In this document: positions 36,746-43,995 of the stretch, in pieces | How the letters are laid out: each line of letters begins with the position of its first letter | Position numbering within the stretch: the first letter of the stretch is position 1 | Assembly: GCA_945827785.1 (NCBI GenBank) | Contig: CALZOR010000008.1 | Location: 1-43,995, forward strand | DNA: 43,995 nucleotides | Direction: 5' to 3' | Source of the DNA: an uncultured Bacteroidales bacterium | GTDB lineage: Bacteria; Bacteroidota; Bacteroidia; Bacteroidales; UBA932 | Notes under the pieces: model-generated | What the model was told of the DNA's origin: nothing | The model's input: only the letters and a program-made list of their open reading frames with translations | Databases searched by the model: none | Position numbers and translations under genes: made by a program

Positions 36746-36753
36746 TACAGATG

Positions 36754-36840
36754 TCATCTCATGAGTGCTCAGCAAACAGCCCGGTGAGCTTTTGCAGCGA
36801 GCAGCCGACGGCAGTAGGACACGAAGCGCATGGAGAGATC
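36754..36840 (+). repeat. Efflux-locus extragenic repeat, copy A (long form)
   Basis: GCTCAGCAAACAGCCCGGTGAGCTTTTGCAGCGAGCAGCCGACGGCAGTAGGACACGAAGCGCATGGAGAGAT; shared with copies B and C. Confidence 0.85.
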
Positions 36841-36853
36841 TACATTTAAGTAG

Positions 36854-36893
36854 TGTAAAGAGTCTTTACAGATGGTGTAAAAATTCTTTACAC
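36854..36893 (+). promoter_or_regulatory. Tandem palindromic activator sites (putative sigma-54 UAS) upstream of tolC
   Basis: TGTAAAGAGTCTTTACA (36854-36870) and GTGTAAAAATTCTTTACAC (36875-36893), 22-bp period. Confidence 0.75.
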
Positions 36894-36946
36894 TTTTTTT
36901 GTGTTTAATTTTTTTAATAAATTGATTCATAGGATTTTGTACTGTG

Positions 36947-36961
36947 TGGCACGGATGGTGC
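36947..36961 (+). promoter_or_regulatory. Sigma-54 type -24/-12 promoter for tolC
   Basis: TGGCACGGATGGTGC: GG-N10-GC with TGGCACG -24 box; 33 nt before ATG 36994. Confidence 0.8.
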
Positions 36962-36993
36962 CCGTATTCTTCTAAATTTGAAAAATACGTCTT

Positions 36994-38379
36994 ATGAATC
37001 ATAAATTATTATCAACAGCTGCAGCAGCTTTCTTTCTTTGTTCGGGTGCTTTCGCTCAGCCTCTGACAAATCTGGAAACAGGTTATGCCCGGCCGATGAC
37101 ATTGAAAGAATGCATGCAATACGCATTGGACAAGTCTGCCAAGCTGAAAATCCAGCAGACAGATGTGGATGATGCTAAAGTTGCACGGCGCGATGCAATC
37201 CTCAAGGCCTTCACTCCTGCCGTTGAGGCCGGGACCTATGCCTACAGTAATTTCGGACGAAGCGTTGACCCGGAGACAAATACCTATGTTTCAACGACTT
37301 CATTCAATAATGGCTATTCCGTTTCCGCCGGAATCGTCCTCTTCAACGGCTTCGAGGCTGTCAACAATGTGAAGATTTCCAAGACTTCGCTCATGATGGG
37401 CATTGAGCAGGAGCAGAAGCTCAGGGATGAAATCTGCCTTGCTACTATGGAGGCCTTCTACAATGTCGTCTATTACACAAAACTTTCGGTTATCGTTGAG
37501 GGGCAGGTCAGTACATTGAAGGATGCCCTTGAACTCGTCCGTCGTCAGGAGGAACTTGGACAGAAAGGCTATGCCGACCTTGTCCAAACTCAGGCTGACC
37601 TTGCAGATATGGAATATAATCTGATTGTGGCGCAGAACAATCTTGCATCGGCCTTGATTACCCTGAAGGACATAATGTTTTGGGAAGAGGATAAGGATCT
37701 GGTTATCAATATGGAAGAAGTTGAACAGGCACGTACTCTCACGGATGCTGATCCCATTGAAGAAAGCAGCGCCGTGGCGGACTATGCAGTTGAGCACAAT
37801 TCTTCTGTCCTGATTGCAAAAGGCAGGATGGATAATGCAAGGCTCAATCTGAGGACTGCGAAATGGAAATTTACCCCATACCTCTCTCTCAATGCCGGTT
37901 GGTCCACAAGTTATTATACCTATCCGGGACTTGCAGGCTATGCACCTGTGCCTTATGGACAGCAGTTCAGGAACAACGGCGGAGAGTATGTTCAGCTTTC
38001 ACTTTCGTTCCCGATTTTCAACAGGCTTCTGACTTTCTCCAATTTGAGGAAGATGAAAAACAGTTACAAAAGAGCTGAGGCTGAATATGATACGGTTGTG
38101 CGTCAGGTGCAGGCTGAGGTTGAAAGGGCAGTGCAGGACCGTAACGGAGCTGCAGCGGCGCTGAATCAGGCCGAGCGCAGGGAAAGCTTCCAGGATGAAG
38201 CCTGGAGGCTGAATGTCAAAAAGTTCGAGCAGGGCCTTATTTCTCCGATTGATTTCCGTAAAGCCTCGGATAATCTGATGAACGCCAAGGCTGAACGCCT
38301 CAATGCCCTTCTCAAATGGCACCTTAAAAGCAGTGTCGTCAAATACTATAACGGCATATCCTACATTGACCAATATTGA
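36994..38379 (+). CDS. TolC family outer membrane efflux protein
   Basis: TLKECMQYALDKSAKLKIQQTDVDDAKVARRDAILKAFTPAVEAG; coiled-coil repeats. Confidence 0.93.
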   Translation: MNHKLLSTAAAAFFLCSGAFAQPLTNLETGYARPMTLKECMQYALDKSAKLKIQQTDVDDAKVARRDAILKAFTPAVEAGTYAYSNFGRSVDPETNTYVSTTSFNNGYSVSAGIVLFNGFEAVNNVKISKTSLMMGIEQEQKLRDEICLATMEAFYNVVYYTKLSVIVEGQVSTLKDALELVRRQEELGQKGYADLVQTQADLADMEYNLIVAQNNLASALITLKDIMFWEEDKDLVINMEEVEQARTLTDADPIEESSAVADYAVEHNSSVLIAKGRMDNARLNLRTAKWKFTPYLSLNAGWSTSYYTYPGLAGYAPVPYGQQFRNNGGEYVQLSLSFPIFNRLLTFSNLRKMKNSYKRAEAEYDTVVRQVQAEVERAVQDRNGAAAALNQAERRESFQDEAWRLNVKKFEQGLISPIDFRKASDNLMNAKAERLNALLKWHLKSSVVKYYNGISYIDQY

Positions 38380-39650
38380 AAAAACACAAAACAATGGACA
38401 AAATAATTGAAAAGAAAAAAGGATGGAGAGCCGCATTTACAAAAAAGGCCCTTCCGTACTGGGGCGGCGCCCTCGTTCTCGCACTTGTTCTCTGGCTCGT
38501 GTTCAGGGACAACTCCGCAACCCTCAGGGTAAATGCTGACTCATTGACAATCAGCCAGGTAAGCCAAGGCGAATTCAATGACTACATCCGCGTAAGCGGC
38601 CAGGTCCAGCCAATGACGACCATCCAGATAAGCCCGCAGGAAGGCGGTATCGTCCAGGAAATCGTGACCGAGGAAGGCTCAAGGCTGAAGGCCGGAGATG
38701 TCATAGCCCGACTGAGCAACGACAACCTCGACCTTCAGATTCTCAACTCCGAGGCCGAACTTGCCGAGAAGGAGAACATTCTGCGCAACACATTGATTTC
38801 CATGGAACAACAGAAGCTCTCCCTCAAACAGGACAAGCTCCAGCTCCAGACAGAGGTGGCTCGTCTGAGGAGAAAATATGAGCAGAACAAGGCCCTTTAT
38901 GAGGACAGACTGATTGCCAGGGAAGATTATCTTACCTCGAAGGAGGACTATGAACTTGCAGCAGGAAAACTTGAGCTCGTGAAGGACAGGGCGGAGCAGG
39001 ACAGCCTCTACAGGAGCGTGCAGATTCTCCAGATGCAGGAAAGCCTCGACAATATGAGGCGCAACATGCTGATGATCCGTCACAGAAAGGAGAACCTTAC
39101 AATCAAGGCTCCGATTGACGGCGAACTTGGCCTTCTGGACGTAGTGCTGGGACAGTCAATCTCGGCAGGAATGAAAATAGGACAGATCAATAATCTGGAT
39201 AGCTATAAGATTGAAGCTCAGATAGATGAACATTATATCGACCGCGTGTCAGCAGGACTTGCAGCGACATTCCAGAGGCAGAATGACTCCTACGGAGCCA
39301 TCATCCGCAAGGTCTATCCTGAGGTGCGTGACGGAAAGTTCAAGGCGGATTTCAAGTTCGAAGGGGAGACTCCGGACAACATCCGCAGCGGCCAGACCTA
39401 TTACCTCAATCTTCAGCTCGGCCAGCCAGAGAATGCTGTGCTCGTGCCTCGCGGTACTTTCTACCAGAAGACAGGTGGCAAATGGATATTCGTGGTGGCT
39501 CCGGAAGGCGGCAAGGCAGTTCGCCGTGAAATACGCATAGGCCGTCAGAATCCTCAATACTATGAGGTCCTCGAAGGCCTCCAGCCAGGCGAAAAGGTCA
39601 TCACCTCCGGCTACGACTCCTTCGGCGACAATGACGTCCTGGTTTTCTGA
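38376..39650 (+). CDS. HlyD/MacA family periplasmic adaptor subunit
   Basis: Single N-terminal TM, VSGQVQPMTTIQISPQEGGIVQEIVTEEGSRLKAGDVIARL; long coiled coil. Confidence 0.93.
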   Translation: MKKHKTMDKIIEKKKGWRAAFTKKALPYWGGALVLALVLWLVFRDNSATLRVNADSLTISQVSQGEFNDYIRVSGQVQPMTTIQISPQEGGIVQEIVTEEGSRLKAGDVIARLSNDNLDLQILNSEAELAEKENILRNTLISMEQQKLSLKQDKLQLQTEVARLRRKYEQNKALYEDRLIAREDYLTSKEDYELAAGKLELVKDRAEQDSLYRSVQILQMQESLDNMRRNMLMIRHRKENLTIKAPIDGELGLLDVVLGQSISAGMKIGQINNLDSYKIEAQIDEHYIDRVSAGLAATFQRQNDSYGAIIRKVYPEVRDGKFKADFKFEGETPDNIRSGQTYYLNLQLGQPENAVLVPRGTFYQKTGGKWIFVVAPEGGKAVRREIRIGRQNPQYYEVLEGLQPGEKVITSGYDSFGDNDVLVF

Positions 39651-39660
39651 TAATAAAGAT

Positions 39661-39714
39661 TTCTCGACATCGCGAGCAGCCGAAGGCAGTAGGACATGAA
39701 GCGCATGGCGAGAT
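39661..39714 (+). repeat. Efflux-locus extragenic repeat, copy B (short form)
   Basis: TTCTCGACATCGCGAGCAGCCGAAGGCAGTAGGACATGAAGCGCATGGCGAGAT. Confidence 0.8.
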
Positions 39715-39738: not shown

Positions 39739-42066
39739 ATGAAACTGAAAGACACAGCAATCAAATCCCTGTCCCTTGGCATCGGACTGGCAATCAGCAT
39801 CATACTCGTTGCGAAGATCTGCTTCGAGTTGAGCTACGACCGTTGCTACCGGGATTATGAAAACATATACCAGATTCGGACTTGCTTCAGCCAGCAGGGT
39901 CACGAACACGATTACACCGGAGTCAGCGGTGGTATTGCCCCCGGATTCAGACAGTATGTCCCCGGGGTGGAAGCCGCAACAAGAACCACTTTTCTGGTTG
40001 AAAACAACCGCTTTAAGGATGAAGACGGCAATATCATCAGCGGTCAGCTCATCGTCGCCGACACTTCATATTTCGATGTCTTCCAGACCGAGATTCTTGC
40101 CGGAGATCCCGCGAAAATACTCGCTACAAACGCCAGCCTTATGGTGTCAAGGACATTTGCAGAGAAACTCGGAGGTGTTCAGGAAGCAATTGGAAAGCAG
40201 ATTGAAAGCGAGGAATACGAAGGATACAAGATGACAGTTGCAGGGGTATTCGAGGACTTCCCGTACCAGAGTTCCCAGAAATATGACATCCTCCTTTCAA
40301 TGGAATCATTATCAAAGAGTACCACTGAAAACTGGCTTGGCAACGACCGGTATATGGGATATGTCCGACTTGCGGAAGGCGTTGATTACAAGATGCTTGC
40401 CCCTGCAATCCGTCTTATGCAGGAGAAGAACCAGCCTCTTGAGCAGCTTGAGAAGTCCGGCTCTAGAATCCAGTATTACCTGTCTCCTCTGTCAAGCAGT
40501 CACACTTCAGAGGATAATGTAAGGAATATGCTGGTCATCCTCGGCATTGTCTCATTGCTGCTGCTCGCGATTTCGCTTCTGAACTATATTCTTTTCGTGA
40601 TTTCAGCGATGGTGAAACGTTCGAAGGAGGTTGGAGTCCGCAAATGCTACGGGGCTGGGACCGCGAATATATATGCAATGATGATGAAGGAGGCGGCGGT
40701 GGATGTGATCGCATCGCTTGTGGTGGCCTCCCTGCTGATTCTCGCTTTCCAAAACATCATAGGTGACATGGTCGGAGTGCCGGTTAAATCATTATTCGTA
40801 CCCCAGGCCCTCATTACTCTTGCATCAGTCATGGCAGTGGTGTTCGTGGTGGCCGCCCTGGTTCCGGCACGCCTGTATTCGAACATCCCGATTGCCTCTG
40901 CCATACGGAATTACAAGGAAAACAAGAGAATATGGAAACTAGCCCTGCTTTTCTCCCAGATCTGCTTTTGTACCTTCCTCATGAGTCTGGTAGTAGTTAT
41001 AGGTCTCCAGTACAGGAAGGCAATCAACGACAAGCCTGGGTATGAATATGAGAATCTGATATTTGCAAACCTCAGAGGTACAGACAGTTCAGTCCATCAG
41101 TCGGTCATTGACAGACTGCTTGCGATTCCTGGGGTGGATGACGTGCAGATGAGTTATGGAGTTCCGCTTGAATGGTCCTCGGGGAACAATGTCTTCCTAT
41201 GGGAGACTCCTATACGAGAACTATTCAACATTGCCGACCAATACGAAGGAACGGAAGGACTTTTCTCGATGCTGGGAATACAGTTCGTCGAAGGACATTA
41301 CCCTCAGACGCTGACTGAAGTGGCTGTCAGTGAGAGTTTTTTGGACAAGATGGCTGAGTTTGAGGACTGGAGCGACGGAGCAGTTGGCAAGCAGATTTAT
41401 ATTTCCGAACATAGCACAAATGGACAGGCATATACTGTCAGCGGCGTATATAAGGATTATCGTATCAGAAACCTGACAAATCCTGACGAAAGGGCGAGCG
41501 TGAAGTTCCTTGGCAAGGTGGGTGAGGGCTATATGCCGTATATTCTGGTCAAAGTGAATGAGGTGGACAGGAATGTGATGGATGAGGCAGACGCGGTCCT
41601 CAGTGAGATCTTCCCTGAGAGGGAAATCGTGTTCACTGCCTACAAGGATGCAATGAGGAATGCTTACAAGGAAGAGAGAAGGATGCGGAACACAGTGCTT
41701 TCCGGCTGCGCTATATGCATATTGATAGCACTTTTCGGCCTTGCGGGCTATGTGCGGGATGAGTCGGAGAGAAGGAGCAAGGAGGTGGCTGTCAGGAAAA
41801 TCAATGGCGCTACAGTGAGGGATATACTTGGTCTGTTCGTCAGGGAAATCGGACTGCTCGGCATAGTTGCCGCTCTGCTTGCCGATGCCGGAGCCTTCTT
41901 TACGGCTAATGTCTGGCTGGAGAATTTTGCGGAGAAAATCAGTCTTTCCCCTCTGATCTTCCTCTCTGCCGACATCATCATTCTTGCCATCGTCGCCACG
42001 ACAGTCATTCTATGCTGCCTCCGCATCAGTCGCGCCAACCCTGTAGATTCACTGAAAGATAATTAA
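39739..42066 (+). CDS. FtsX/MacB family ABC transporter permease
   Basis: 775 aa; N-terminal SYDRCYRDYENIYQIR (MacB periplasmic core); two FtsX-like segments (RSKEVGVRKCYGAG, RSKEVAVRKINGAT). Confidence 0.93.
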   Translation: MKLKDTAIKSLSLGIGLAISIILVAKICFELSYDRCYRDYENIYQIRTCFSQQGHEHDYTGVSGGIAPGFRQYVPGVEAATRTTFLVENNRFKDEDGNIISGQLIVADTSYFDVFQTEILAGDPAKILATNASLMVSRTFAEKLGGVQEAIGKQIESEEYEGYKMTVAGVFEDFPYQSSQKYDILLSMESLSKSTTENWLGNDRYMGYVRLAEGVDYKMLAPAIRLMQEKNQPLEQLEKSGSRIQYYLSPLSSSHTSEDNVRNMLVILGIVSLLLLAISLLNYILFVISAMVKRSKEVGVRKCYGAGTANIYAMMMKEAAVDVIASLVVASLLILAFQNIIGDMVGVPVKSLFVPQALITLASVMAVVFVVAALVPARLYSNIPIASAIRNYKENKRIWKLALLFSQICFCTFLMSLVVVIGLQYRKAINDKPGYEYENLIFANLRGTDSSVHQSVIDRLLAIPGVDDVQMSYGVPLEWSSGNNVFLWETPIRELFNIADQYEGTEGLFSMLGIQFVEGHYPQTLTEVAVSESFLDKMAEFEDWSDGAVGKQIYISEHSTNGQAYTVSGVYKDYRIRNLTNPDERASVKFLGKVGEGYMPYILVKVNEVDRNVMDEADAVLSEIFPEREIVFTAYKDAMRNAYKEERRMRNTVLSGCAICILIALFGLAGYVRDESERRSKEVAVRKINGATVRDILGLFVREIGLLGIVAALLADAGAFFTANVWLENFAEKISLSPLIFLSADIIILAIVATTVILCCLRISRANPVDSLKDN

Positions 42067-42161
42067 TTTTTATTTTGATGAGACAATTTCTCGGTGCAAT
42101 TTTTGCGATTGAACAAGTGCTATTTGCAATAGATTTGTTTAACCATCAGAATCAGAAAAAA

Positions 42162-42596
42162 ATGAAAAAGATTGCTACACTTTTATTGTCACTGGCCTTT
42201 TTCGCTTTCACAGCGAATGCTGATGACAGACCGATTGATTATGAGCAGCTTCCATCTGCTGCAAAGAACTTTATTAAGGCAGATTTCCCGACAGAGAGCA
42301 TTTCGTACATAACCATGGATATGGATCTGCTTGACACAGCCTACGATGTACATTTTGCCAATGGATTGAAAATCGAATTCAACAGCAAAGGCGAATGGAC
42401 GGAAATAAGTTGCACATCCTCACCGATTGACAGTAAGTACATCCCGCGTCAGATTATCGACACGGTCGCGACCAGATGGCCGGGAGAGAAGTTCAAGAAA
42501 ATCGAAAGGTACTGGCACGGATATGAGGTCGAACTCACAAACCGTCTGGAATTGAAATTCGACAAGAAATTCAGACTTACTGAAATAGACGACTGA
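42162..42596 (+). CDS. PepSY-like (BLIP-type) periplasmic protein
   Basis: Signal peptide MKKIATLLLSLAFFAFTANA; LPSAAKNFIKADFPTESISYITMD; start adjusted. Confidence 0.82.
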   Translation: MKKIATLLLSLAFFAFTANADDRPIDYEQLPSAAKNFIKADFPTESISYITMDMDLLDTAYDVHFANGLKIEFNSKGEWTEISCTSSPIDSKYIPRQIIDTVATRWPGEKFKKIERYWHGYEVELTNRLELKFDKKFRLTEIDD

Positions 42597-42735: not shown

Positions 42736-42774
42736 TGTTAAATAACTTTACATCCAGTGTAAATTTTCTTTACA
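42736..42774 (+). promoter_or_regulatory. Tandem palindromic activator sites (putative sigma-54 UAS) upstream of the ABC ATPase
   Basis: TGTTAAATAACTTTACA (42736-42752, degenerate) and TGTAAATTTTCTTTACA (42758-42774), 22-bp period. Confidence 0.7.
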
Positions 42775-42828: not shown

Positions 42829-42843
42829 TGGCACGGGTGGTGC
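42829..42843 (+). promoter_or_regulatory. Sigma-54 type -24/-12 promoter for the ABC ATPase operon
   Basis: TGGCACGGGTGGTGC: GG-N10-GC; same offset from the UAS pair as at tolC. Confidence 0.8.
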
Positions 42844-42859: not shown

Positions 42860-42950
42860 CATCTCGGCCTCGCGAGCGCTCAGCAAACAGCCCAGCGGAC
42901 TTTTGCAGCGAGCAGCCGGCAGCAGTCGGACATGAAGTACGTGGAGAGAA
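42860..42950 (+). repeat. Efflux-locus extragenic repeat, copy C (long form), in the predicted 5' UTR of the ABC ATPase
   Basis: GCGAGCGCTCAGCAAACAGCCCAGCGGACTTTTGCAGCGAGCAGCCGGCAGCAGTCGGACATGAAGTACGTGGAGAGA. Confidence 0.85.
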
Positions 42951-42993
42951 CTTATGAATTTAAGAATGAATAACAATTAAATACCAATAAATT

Positions 42994-43674
42994 ATGATTA
43001 AAGTTACAGACCTGTGCAAAGTCTTCCGCACAGAAGAAATTGAAACAACCGCACTGAACAACGTGTCATTTGAAATCGGAAATGGGGAATTCGTCGCAAT
43101 CATGGGCCCTTCTGGCTGCGGCAAATCGACGCTTCTGAATATCCTCGGCCTTTTGGACAACCCGTCATCGGGAAGCTATGAACTGCTAGGCCAGGAAGTG
43201 GCAAACCTCAAGGAGAAGGACCGCACCAAATTCCGCAAGGGCAACATCGGCTTCGTGTTCCAGAGCTTCAACCTCATTGACGAACTCAATGTGTATGAGA
43301 ATGTTGAACTGCCGCTTCGCTACCTGAACATAAGTGCTTCGGAGCGAAAGGAAAGGGTTACAGCGATGCTCAAGAGAATGAGCATCAGCCATCGCGCACA
43401 GCATTTCCCGCAGCAGCTTTCCGGAGGTCAGCAGCAGAGGGTGGCCATTGCACGCGCCGTGGTCTCAAGCCCGAAACTCATCCTCGCCGACGAGCCTACA
43501 GGTAACCTCGACTCAAAGAACGGCAAGGAGGTTATGGAACTGCTTCAGGAACTCAACAGCGAAGGTACTACCATCGTTATGGTAACCCACTCCCAGAGGG
43601 ATGCAGCCTGTGCCCACCGCACCATCAACCTCTTTGACGGTGCCATTGTCAGCGATGTGCAGAACGAACTGTAA
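42994..43674 (+). CDS. ABC transporter ATP-binding protein (LolD/MacB type)
   Basis: Walker A GPSGCGKST, signature LSGGQQQRVAIARA, Walker B LILADEPTGNLD. Confidence 0.96.
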   Translation: MIKVTDLCKVFRTEEIETTALNNVSFEIGNGEFVAIMGPSGCGKSTLLNILGLLDNPSSGSYELLGQEVANLKEKDRTKFRKGNIGFVFQSFNLIDELNVYENVELPLRYLNISASERKERVTAMLKRMSISHRAQHFPQQLSGGQQQRVAIARAVVSSPKLILADEPTGNLDSKNGKEVMELLQELNSEGTTIVMVTHSQRDAACAHRTINLFDGAIVSDVQNEL

Positions 43675-43699
43675 AAACATAAATATTGAATCACGGCAC

Positions 43700-43807
43700 T
43701 ATCGTGAGATCGACCGCAATCATCCCACTTCCGGCCGTATCTACCGCGTTGACAAAATCGGCATGGACAAGGAAGGGAACCGTGTCGTTACCGGTCAGAG
43801 TTCCGGC
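43700..43807 (+). pseudogene. Internal remnant of a MacB/FtsX-type permease (periplasmic core start)
   Basis: YREIDRNHPTSGRIYRVDKIGMDKEGNRVVTGQSSG aligns with SYDRCYRDYENIYQIRTCFSQQGHEHDYTGVSGG of the 39739 permease; both ends missing. Confidence 0.6.
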
Positions 43808-43995
43808 ACGGGTTCGTTATCGATGAAAATGTCACCGCCTTCATACCATTCTTTAAGATGTACGCTGACTTCCACTTCTGTAGCGCCATAGATGGTCAGA
43901 GTGATATTGTAGCGGTTTCCGGCTTCGAAATATGAACTTCTGCTGATAGGGAGTTCAGTGACAAGATTGTCATGTTCAATTCCGTCTTCCCTCAC
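43795..43995 (-). CDS. Fimbrillin-like protein, C-terminal part (gene continues beyond the window)
   Basis: LPISRSSYFEAGNRYNITLTIYGATEVEVSVHLKEWYEGGDIFIDNEPVPEL*; typical fimbrillin-family C-terminus. Confidence 0.55.
   Translation of the reverse strand: MREDGIEHDNLVTELPISRSSYFEAGNRYNITLTIYGATEVEVSVHLKEWYEGGDIFIDNEPVPEL

What the first reader, a model, noticed from the sequence alone, without database searches (positions are those of the whole stretch)
36854..36994. Sigma-54 promoter with tandem enhancer palindromes driving tolC
Seen directly: TGGCACGGATGGTGC (GG-N10-GC) 33 nt before the tolC ATG. It is preceded by two near-perfect palindromes, TGTAAAGAGTCTTTACA and TGTAAAAATTCTTTACA, on a 22-bp period (same helix face). 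The second palindrome centre lies about 89 bp before the expected start site, which is standard UAS geometry for an NtrC-type bacterial enhancer-binding protein. This suggests a dedicated two-component/sigma-54 efflux regulon in a Bacteroidales genome, where sigma-54 regulons are poorly mapped. The regulator is not in this window.
Basis: partly seen in the sequence, partly recalled or inferred. Interest (0 to 1): 0.82.

Follow-up and report, generated by a model that had tools for sequence, protein, structure and literature searches.

The report
Enhancer-driven sigma-54 promoters of an exporter
In a gut Bacteroidales genome, genes for an export pump sit behind two matching sigma-54 promoters with paired enhancer sites, and the likely dedicated activator and sensor kinase (which near relatives encode in the same operon) are also in this genome; this makes an almost unstudied regulatory circuit of gut bacteria directly testable.

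Summary
The tandem palindromes TGTAAA-N5-TTTACA (36854-36870, 36876-36892) and the -24/-12 box TGGCACGGATGGTGC (36947-36961) lie upstream of tolC as described. The genome's only three perfect palindromes are all in these two promoters (0.125 expected per 2 Mb). The genome has rpoN and three sigma-54 activators; one, on contig C107, is an NtrC-type response regulator followed by a histidine kinase. In a near relative this pair ends one long operon: UAS, sigma-54 box, tolC, hlyD, ftsX, ftsX, ABC, ftsX, ftsX, activator, kinase. All 15 order-level genomes with the tandem palindrome carry a relative of this activator. Of 29 distinct tandem sites, 28 have GGCA 52-55 or 63-66 bp downstream, about one helical turn apart, with a conserved TG at -12. 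Best reading: the activator binds the palindromes and switches on the exporter, and its own genes, with sigma-54 RNA polymerase. Signal and direct binding are untested. New member of a known kind; a 2025 in-silico survey already predicted sigma-54 control of FtsX-type permeases in Bacteroidia.

The parts
36854..36870 (.). UAS palindrome 1 of the tolC promoter, TGTAAA-GAGTC-TTTACA (centre about -111)
   Evidence: perfect match; conserved tandem arrangement in 29 distinct sites
36876..36892 (.). UAS palindrome 2 of the tolC promoter, TGTAAA-AATTC-TTTACA (centre about -89)
   Evidence: perfect match, 22 bp after palindrome 1
36947..36961 (+). sigma-54 -24/-12 box of tolC, TGGCACGGATGGTGC
   Evidence: the same box at the same gap (54 bp) in the orthologous locus L174 and at 52-55 or 63-66 bp in 28 of 29 sites
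36994..38379 (+). TolC-type outer-membrane channel
   Evidence: Pfam OEP 3.4e-49
38376..39650 (+). HlyD-type periplasmic adaptor (ORF from upstream TTG; the true start may be the ATG near 38395)
   Evidence: Pfam HlyD_3 1.1e-15; best NCBIfam DarC, below cut-off
39739..42066 (+). MacB/FtsX-type permease
   Evidence: Pfam MacB_PCD and FtsX; 85.5% identical to the permease in the L040/L172 operon
42075..42596 (+). PepSY-like protein, last gene of the first unit
   Evidence: Pfam PF11396 3e-27
42736..42752 (.). UAS palindrome 1 of the second promoter, TGTTAAATAACTTTACA (1 mismatch)
42758..42774 (.). UAS palindrome 2 of the second promoter, TGTAAATTTTCTTTACA
   Evidence: perfect match, 22 bp after the first
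42829..42843 (+). sigma-54 -24/-12 box of the second promoter, TGGCACGGGTGGTGC
   Evidence: gap 54 bp, identical to the tolC promoter
42994..43674 (+). ABC ATPase of the exporter
   Evidence: Pfam ABC_tran 2e-37; 86-87% identical to the ATPase of the L040/L172 and L148 operons

Best explanation
Two enhancer-dependent sigma-54 promoters drive the tolC-hlyD-ftsX-pepSY unit and the ABC-ATPase unit of one MacB/Dar-like tripartite exporter. The activator is an NtrC-type response regulator (receiver, AAA+, Fis-type HTH) encoded with a short histidine kinase on contig C107. Dimers of the phosphorylated activator bind the two palindromes (centred at about -111 and -89), assemble the AAA+ oligomer, loop to closed sigma-54 RNA polymerase at -24/-12 and open it. 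In relatives the activator and kinase genes are the last genes of the same operon, or divergent from the same UAS, so positive autoregulation is likely. Shown: the sites, their spacing and conservation, the components, and their genomic linkage. Inferred from the NtrC family: binding, phosphorylation, start site, sigma-54 dependence. Unknown: the signal; the kinase has one short N-terminal membrane anchor and no periplasmic domain, so envelope stress or a transporter-derived signal is a guess.
For: Two identical-geometry promoters in one window and no other perfect palindrome in the genome. rpoN and activators present. Tandem palindrome in 15 of 294 order genomes, control pattern 0; all 15 have a C107-type activator, 11 on the same contig as a tandem site, 10 within 20 kb, 5 adjacent and divergent. 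21 of 25 well-flanked activator loci contain TolC/HlyD/FtsX relatives. Intact operon with UAS, box, exporter, activator and kinase in L172; orthologous promoter with the same flanking TSCPD gene in L174. 28 of 29 tandem sites have GGCA at 52-55 or 63-66 bp, control windows 41 of 232; -12 TG conserved although not selected for. Genus-wide association of motif and activator, 53/85 against 6/76.
Against: No expression, footprint or start-site data. The activator's L1 loop reads GAFTDA, not GAFTGA (the Thr is kept). C8 and C107 are not joined in this assembly. The promoter-unit assignment rests on gene order. 32 of 85 genus genomes with the activator lack a match to the strict composite pattern, as expected if sites vary, but not proven.
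Confidence: 0.88

Rival explanations
1. The promoters are sigma-54-dependent, but another activator of this genome (C5, upstream of lptE, or C21) uses these sites instead of the C107 activator.
For: The genome encodes three activators; crosstalk cannot be excluded by sequence.
Against: The palindromes co-occur and co-localise with C107 orthologs. C21 has no Fis-type HTH and stops after the AAA+ lid; C5 has a different HTH. Genomes with only the other activators mostly lack the motif (6 of 76).
Confidence: 0.05
2. The palindromes are operators of a repressor (TetR/MarR-like), and the nearby -24/-12 box is incidental or separately regulated.
For: Tandem palindromes with about 22-bp spacing are also typical repressor operators (general knowledge).
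Against: The distance to the -24 box is fixed and helically phased in 28 of 29 sites; the box is conserved with its -12 TG; no transcription-factor domain was found in the ten window ORFs tested; the only regulators seen recurring in the loci are activator and kinase, although other regulators were not searched for systematically.
Confidence: 0.04
3. The tandem palindromes act as an RNA hairpin, a terminator for the upstream TSCPD gene.
For: The tolC copy folds into a -19.1 kcal/mol hairpin followed by a U run, z -5.65.
Against: The second window copy folds no better than shuffles (z -0.99), and four of eight relatives have z weaker than -2. Sites are equally conserved where the flanking gene is divergent. 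Tandem palindromes fold back on themselves by construction. A side effect as terminator at tolC is not excluded.
Confidence: 0.03

Closest known systems
NtrC-type sigma-54 two-component systems (ZraSR, AtoSC, NtrBC)
   Same: Receiver + AAA+ + Fis-type HTH activator with a histidine kinase; paired palindromic UAS about 90-110 bp upstream of a -24/-12 promoter; best named relatives are PEP_resp_reg, AtoC, NtrC and ZraR, kinase AtoS/ZraS.
   Different: All scores are below the curated cut-offs for those named proteins; the target is a TolC-HlyD-FtsX exporter; the UAS is TGTAAA-N5-TTTACA; the L1 loop is GAFTDA; the kinase has no periplasmic sensor domain.
Predicted sigma-54 control of COG0577 FtsX-type permeases in Bacteroidia (PMC12316311, 2025)
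   Same: Genome-scale in-silico prediction that sigma-54 promoters are enriched upstream of FtsX-type ABC permeases in Bacteroidia.
   Different: The passages read name no activator, UAS or operon for them; the present work supplies these.
Flavobacterium psychrophilum sigma-54 regulon (PMC9723704)
   Same: Bacteroidota -24/-12 promoters found from mapped 5' ends, linked to envelope stress and protein quality control; three sigma-54 activators in the genome.
   Different: TolC and palindromes are not mentioned in that text.
MacAB-TolC and darobactin exporter DarBCD
   Same: HlyD adaptor, MacB_PCD/FtsX permease and separate MacB-like ATPase; best NCBIfam hits include DarC, DarD and the ADOP permease family.
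   Different: Equivalog cut-offs not reached; several permeases per operon in relatives; substrate unknown.

Membership tests
Enhancer-dependent sigma-54 promoter | -24/-12 element with GG-N10-GC | tested here: met
   36947-36961 and 42829-42843, both 0 mismatches to TGGCACG-N5-TGC
Enhancer-dependent sigma-54 promoter | rpoN in the genome | tested here: met
   C1:51811-52287, E 4.4e-54
Enhancer-dependent sigma-54 promoter | UAS about 80-150 bp upstream, at a conserved distance | tested here: met
   28 of 29 tandem sites
Enhancer-dependent sigma-54 promoter | transcription start about 12 nt downstream of the GC; loss in an rpoN mutant | not testable with these tools
   needs 5'-end mapping and mutants
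NtrC-type enhancer-binding response regulator (C107) | receiver, sigma-54 AAA+ and Fis-type HTH domains | tested here: met
   Pfam PF00072, PF00158, PF02954 over cut-off
NtrC-type enhancer-binding response regulator (C107) | phospho-acceptor Asp, Walker A and Walker B | tested here: met
   conserved in all 16 orthologs aligned
NtrC-type enhancer-binding response regulator (C107) | GAFTGA sigma-54 contact loop | tested here: inconclusive
   GAFTDA or GSFTDA in all 16; the Thr is kept, the second Gly is Asp
NtrC-type enhancer-binding response regulator (C107) | binds the UAS | not testable with these tools
   only co-occurrence and linkage shown
MacAB-TolC-type tripartite exporter | OEP, HlyD, MacB_PCD/FtsX and ABC ATPase encoded together | tested here: met
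Darobactin exporter DarBCD (equivalog) | NCBIfam equivalog cut-offs for DarB, DarC, DarD | tested here: not met
   DarC 217 of 450 bits, DarD 289 of 375, DarB 51 of 700

The most novel reading that the evidence does not exclude
A sigma-54 counterpart of the BceRS-BceAB logic: a two-component system whose kinase lacks its own sensor domain reads the state of the FtsX-type permeases encoded in the same operon, and its NtrC-type activator turns on exporter and regulator together through a helically phased UAS conserved across many Bacteroidales families.
Probability: 0.25. Interest if true: 0.75.

Novelty: new member of a known kind. Interest (0 to 1): 0.58.

Why it matters
Sigma-54 regulons of gut Bacteroidales are poorly mapped. 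This gives a concrete activator, binding site, promoter geometry and target operon recurring across many Bacteroidales genera, so the circuit can be tested in a cultured relative. It also assigns a likely regulator to a widespread class of TolC-HlyD-FtsX exporters whose substrates are unknown.

Tried and rejected
The sigma-54 consensus alone is uninformative (38 matches with up to 2 mismatches against 35 expected in the window). MAFFT alignment of the two promoters was misled by a dispersed repeat lying on opposite sides of them; they were compared by coordinates instead. A strict scan for tandem palindrome plus box over 109 activator loci gave only 8 hits; reading the tolC upstream regions showed that more distant family members use GTGTAAAG half-site arrays instead. 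The RNA hairpin/terminator idea was tested and rejected as the main explanation. One-mismatch single palindromes elsewhere in the genome were rejected as background (11 hits in all against 9 for the reversed control). Searching the own genome for the missing ftsX genes found only 21-29% identical permeases, so they are probably in the assembly gap. Literature searches found no paper describing this activator or regulon; subscription journals and preprints are not covered.

Full report
OBSERVATION. A second set with the same dimensions lies 5.9 kb downstream: palindromes 42736-42752 and 42758-42774, box TGGCACGGGTGGTGC 42829-42843, ORF of an ABC ATPase from 42994. In both, 54 bp separate the second palindrome from the -24 box. 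A first-order Markov model of the window gives 0.125 perfect palindromes per 2 Mb and no tandem pair with 5 or fewer mismatches in 8 simulated genomes. The real 1.99-Mb assembly has three perfect palindromes, all in these two promoters. The window is the whole of contig C8 in a 127-contig, 88%-complete genome.

COMPONENTS. rpoN is on C1. Three proteins are real sigma-54 activators: C107 (447 aa; receiver, AAA+, Fis-type HTH; followed by a 292-aa histidine kinase), C5 (413 aa, upstream of lptE) and C21 (382 aa, receiver and AAA+, no HTH detected). The window genes are TolC, HlyD, FtsX/MacB_PCD, a PepSY-like protein and a MacB/LolD/DarD-like ATPase. No transcription-factor domain was found among the ten neighbouring ORFs tested.

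LINKING ACTIVATOR AND SITES. A scan of 294 order-level genomes found the tandem palindrome in 15, and none for the reversed control pattern. All 15 have a relative of the C107 activator (50-74% identical apart from the own genome). In 11 of them a tandem site lies on the same contig as the activator, in 10 within 20 kb, and in 5 the gene is adjacent and divergent. Of 25 activator loci with at least 8 kb on both sides, 21 contain TolC, HlyD or FtsX relatives. Of 91 composite-motif hits in genomes with a listed activator, 58 lie within 5 kb of it; 39 of these cluster at 916-1123 bp, roughly the length of the kinase gene, so the motif sits just beyond the kinase, where tolC starts in many loci. 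Within the genus the motif is in 53 of 85 genomes with an activator ortholog and 6 of 76 without (Fisher p = 1e-13; the genomes are related, so this overstates independence).

INTACT LOCUS IN NEAR RELATIVES. L172 (Bacteroidales bacterium SUG1371; activator 77%, ATPase 86%, FtsX 85.5% identical) reads UAS, sigma-54 box, TolC, HlyD, FtsX, FtsX, ABC, FtsX, FtsX, activator, kinase. A same-genus genome (L148) has ABC-FtsX-FtsX-activator-kinase. L174 keeps the same TSCPD gene upstream, two perfect palindromes, TGGCACGAGCGGTGC at gap 54, then TolC and HlyD. In the own genome, C8 ends just after the ATPase and C107 begins 41 bp before the activator ORF. The natural reading is one locus broken by the assembly; the join itself was not shown.

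GEOMETRY. Of 29 distinct tandem sites gathered from all loci, 28 have GGCA downstream, each with one at a gap of 52-55 or 63-66 bp, about one helical turn apart. Control windows of the same width contain GGCA in 41 of 232 cases. In the 28 oriented sites the -12 TG, which was not used for selection there, is 86% and 96% conserved. A fixed, phased distance is what an enhancer-bound AAA+ activator contacting sigma-54 polymerase would be expected to give. More distant family members keep the sigma-54 box but arrange the half-site GTGTAAAG as arrays of direct and inverted repeats.

MECHANISM. Shown by sequence: sites, spacing, conservation, components, genomic linkage. Inferred from the NtrC family: phosphorylated activator dimers on the palindromes, AAA+ assembly, looping, ATP-driven opening. 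Positive autoregulation follows from the activator's place in the operon or divergent from the same UAS. The contact loop is GAFTDA or GSFTDA instead of GAFTGA in all 16 orthologs aligned, which deserves an experiment. In the own genome and close relatives the kinase has one short N-terminal hydrophobic segment and no periplasmic domain, so the signal may come from the membrane or from the co-encoded permeases; this is a guess.

ALTERNATIVES. A repressor operator does not explain the fixed spacing to -24/-12. An RNA hairpin is strong at tolC (z -5.65) but not at the second promoter (z -0.99), nor in four of eight relatives. Another activator of the same genome is unlikely, given linkage and HTH differences.

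KNOWN WORK. A 2025 in-silico survey (PMC12316311) reports sigma-54 promoters enriched at COG0577 (FtsX-type) permeases in Bacteroidia; the passages read name no activator or UAS for them. In F. psychrophilum, sigma-54 promoters were inferred from mapped 5' ends and point to envelope stress (PMC9723704). The receiver domain has a solved relative, 2QR3 (from Bacteroides fragilis, as I recall). No paper on this regulon was found in the library.

VERDICT. Observation confirmed and extended; interpretation supported. It is a new, well-conserved member of a known kind of control system, with a named candidate activator. The nearest named relatives of the activator are from Candidatus Cryptobacteroides onthequi and other uncultured Bacteroidales; assigning the window to that genus is an inference.

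Noticed in passing
36750-36846, 39672-39714, 42874-42952: A dispersed intergenic repeat of up to about 97 bp (GCTCAGCAAACAGCCC...CAGCGAGCAGCC) occurs three times in this gene cluster and once elsewhere (C4:22421-22490), 84-93% identical. One copy lies inside the 5' leader of the ABC-ATPase unit.
   Followed up: partly
43664-43995: After the ATPase the contig holds a fragment resembling residues 34-70 of an FtsX permease without its N-terminus, then unrelated sequence; the contig end may be misassembled.
   Followed up: partly
L058, L063, L070, L094, L109 upstream of TolC: In many family members the UAS is an array of several GTGTAAAG half-sites in mixed orientation instead of two 22-bp-spaced palindromes, a natural series for studying how activator sites evolve.
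   Followed up: partly
L020:2479-3627 (own contig C21): The second receiver-type sigma-54 activator of this genome stops after the AAA+ lid and shows no HTH, so it may activate without binding DNA.
   Followed up: no
42075-42596: A PepSY-like gene sits between the permease and the second promoter; no relative of it was seen between permease and ATPase in the L172 operon. A periplasmic accessory or sensor role is possible.
   Followed up: no
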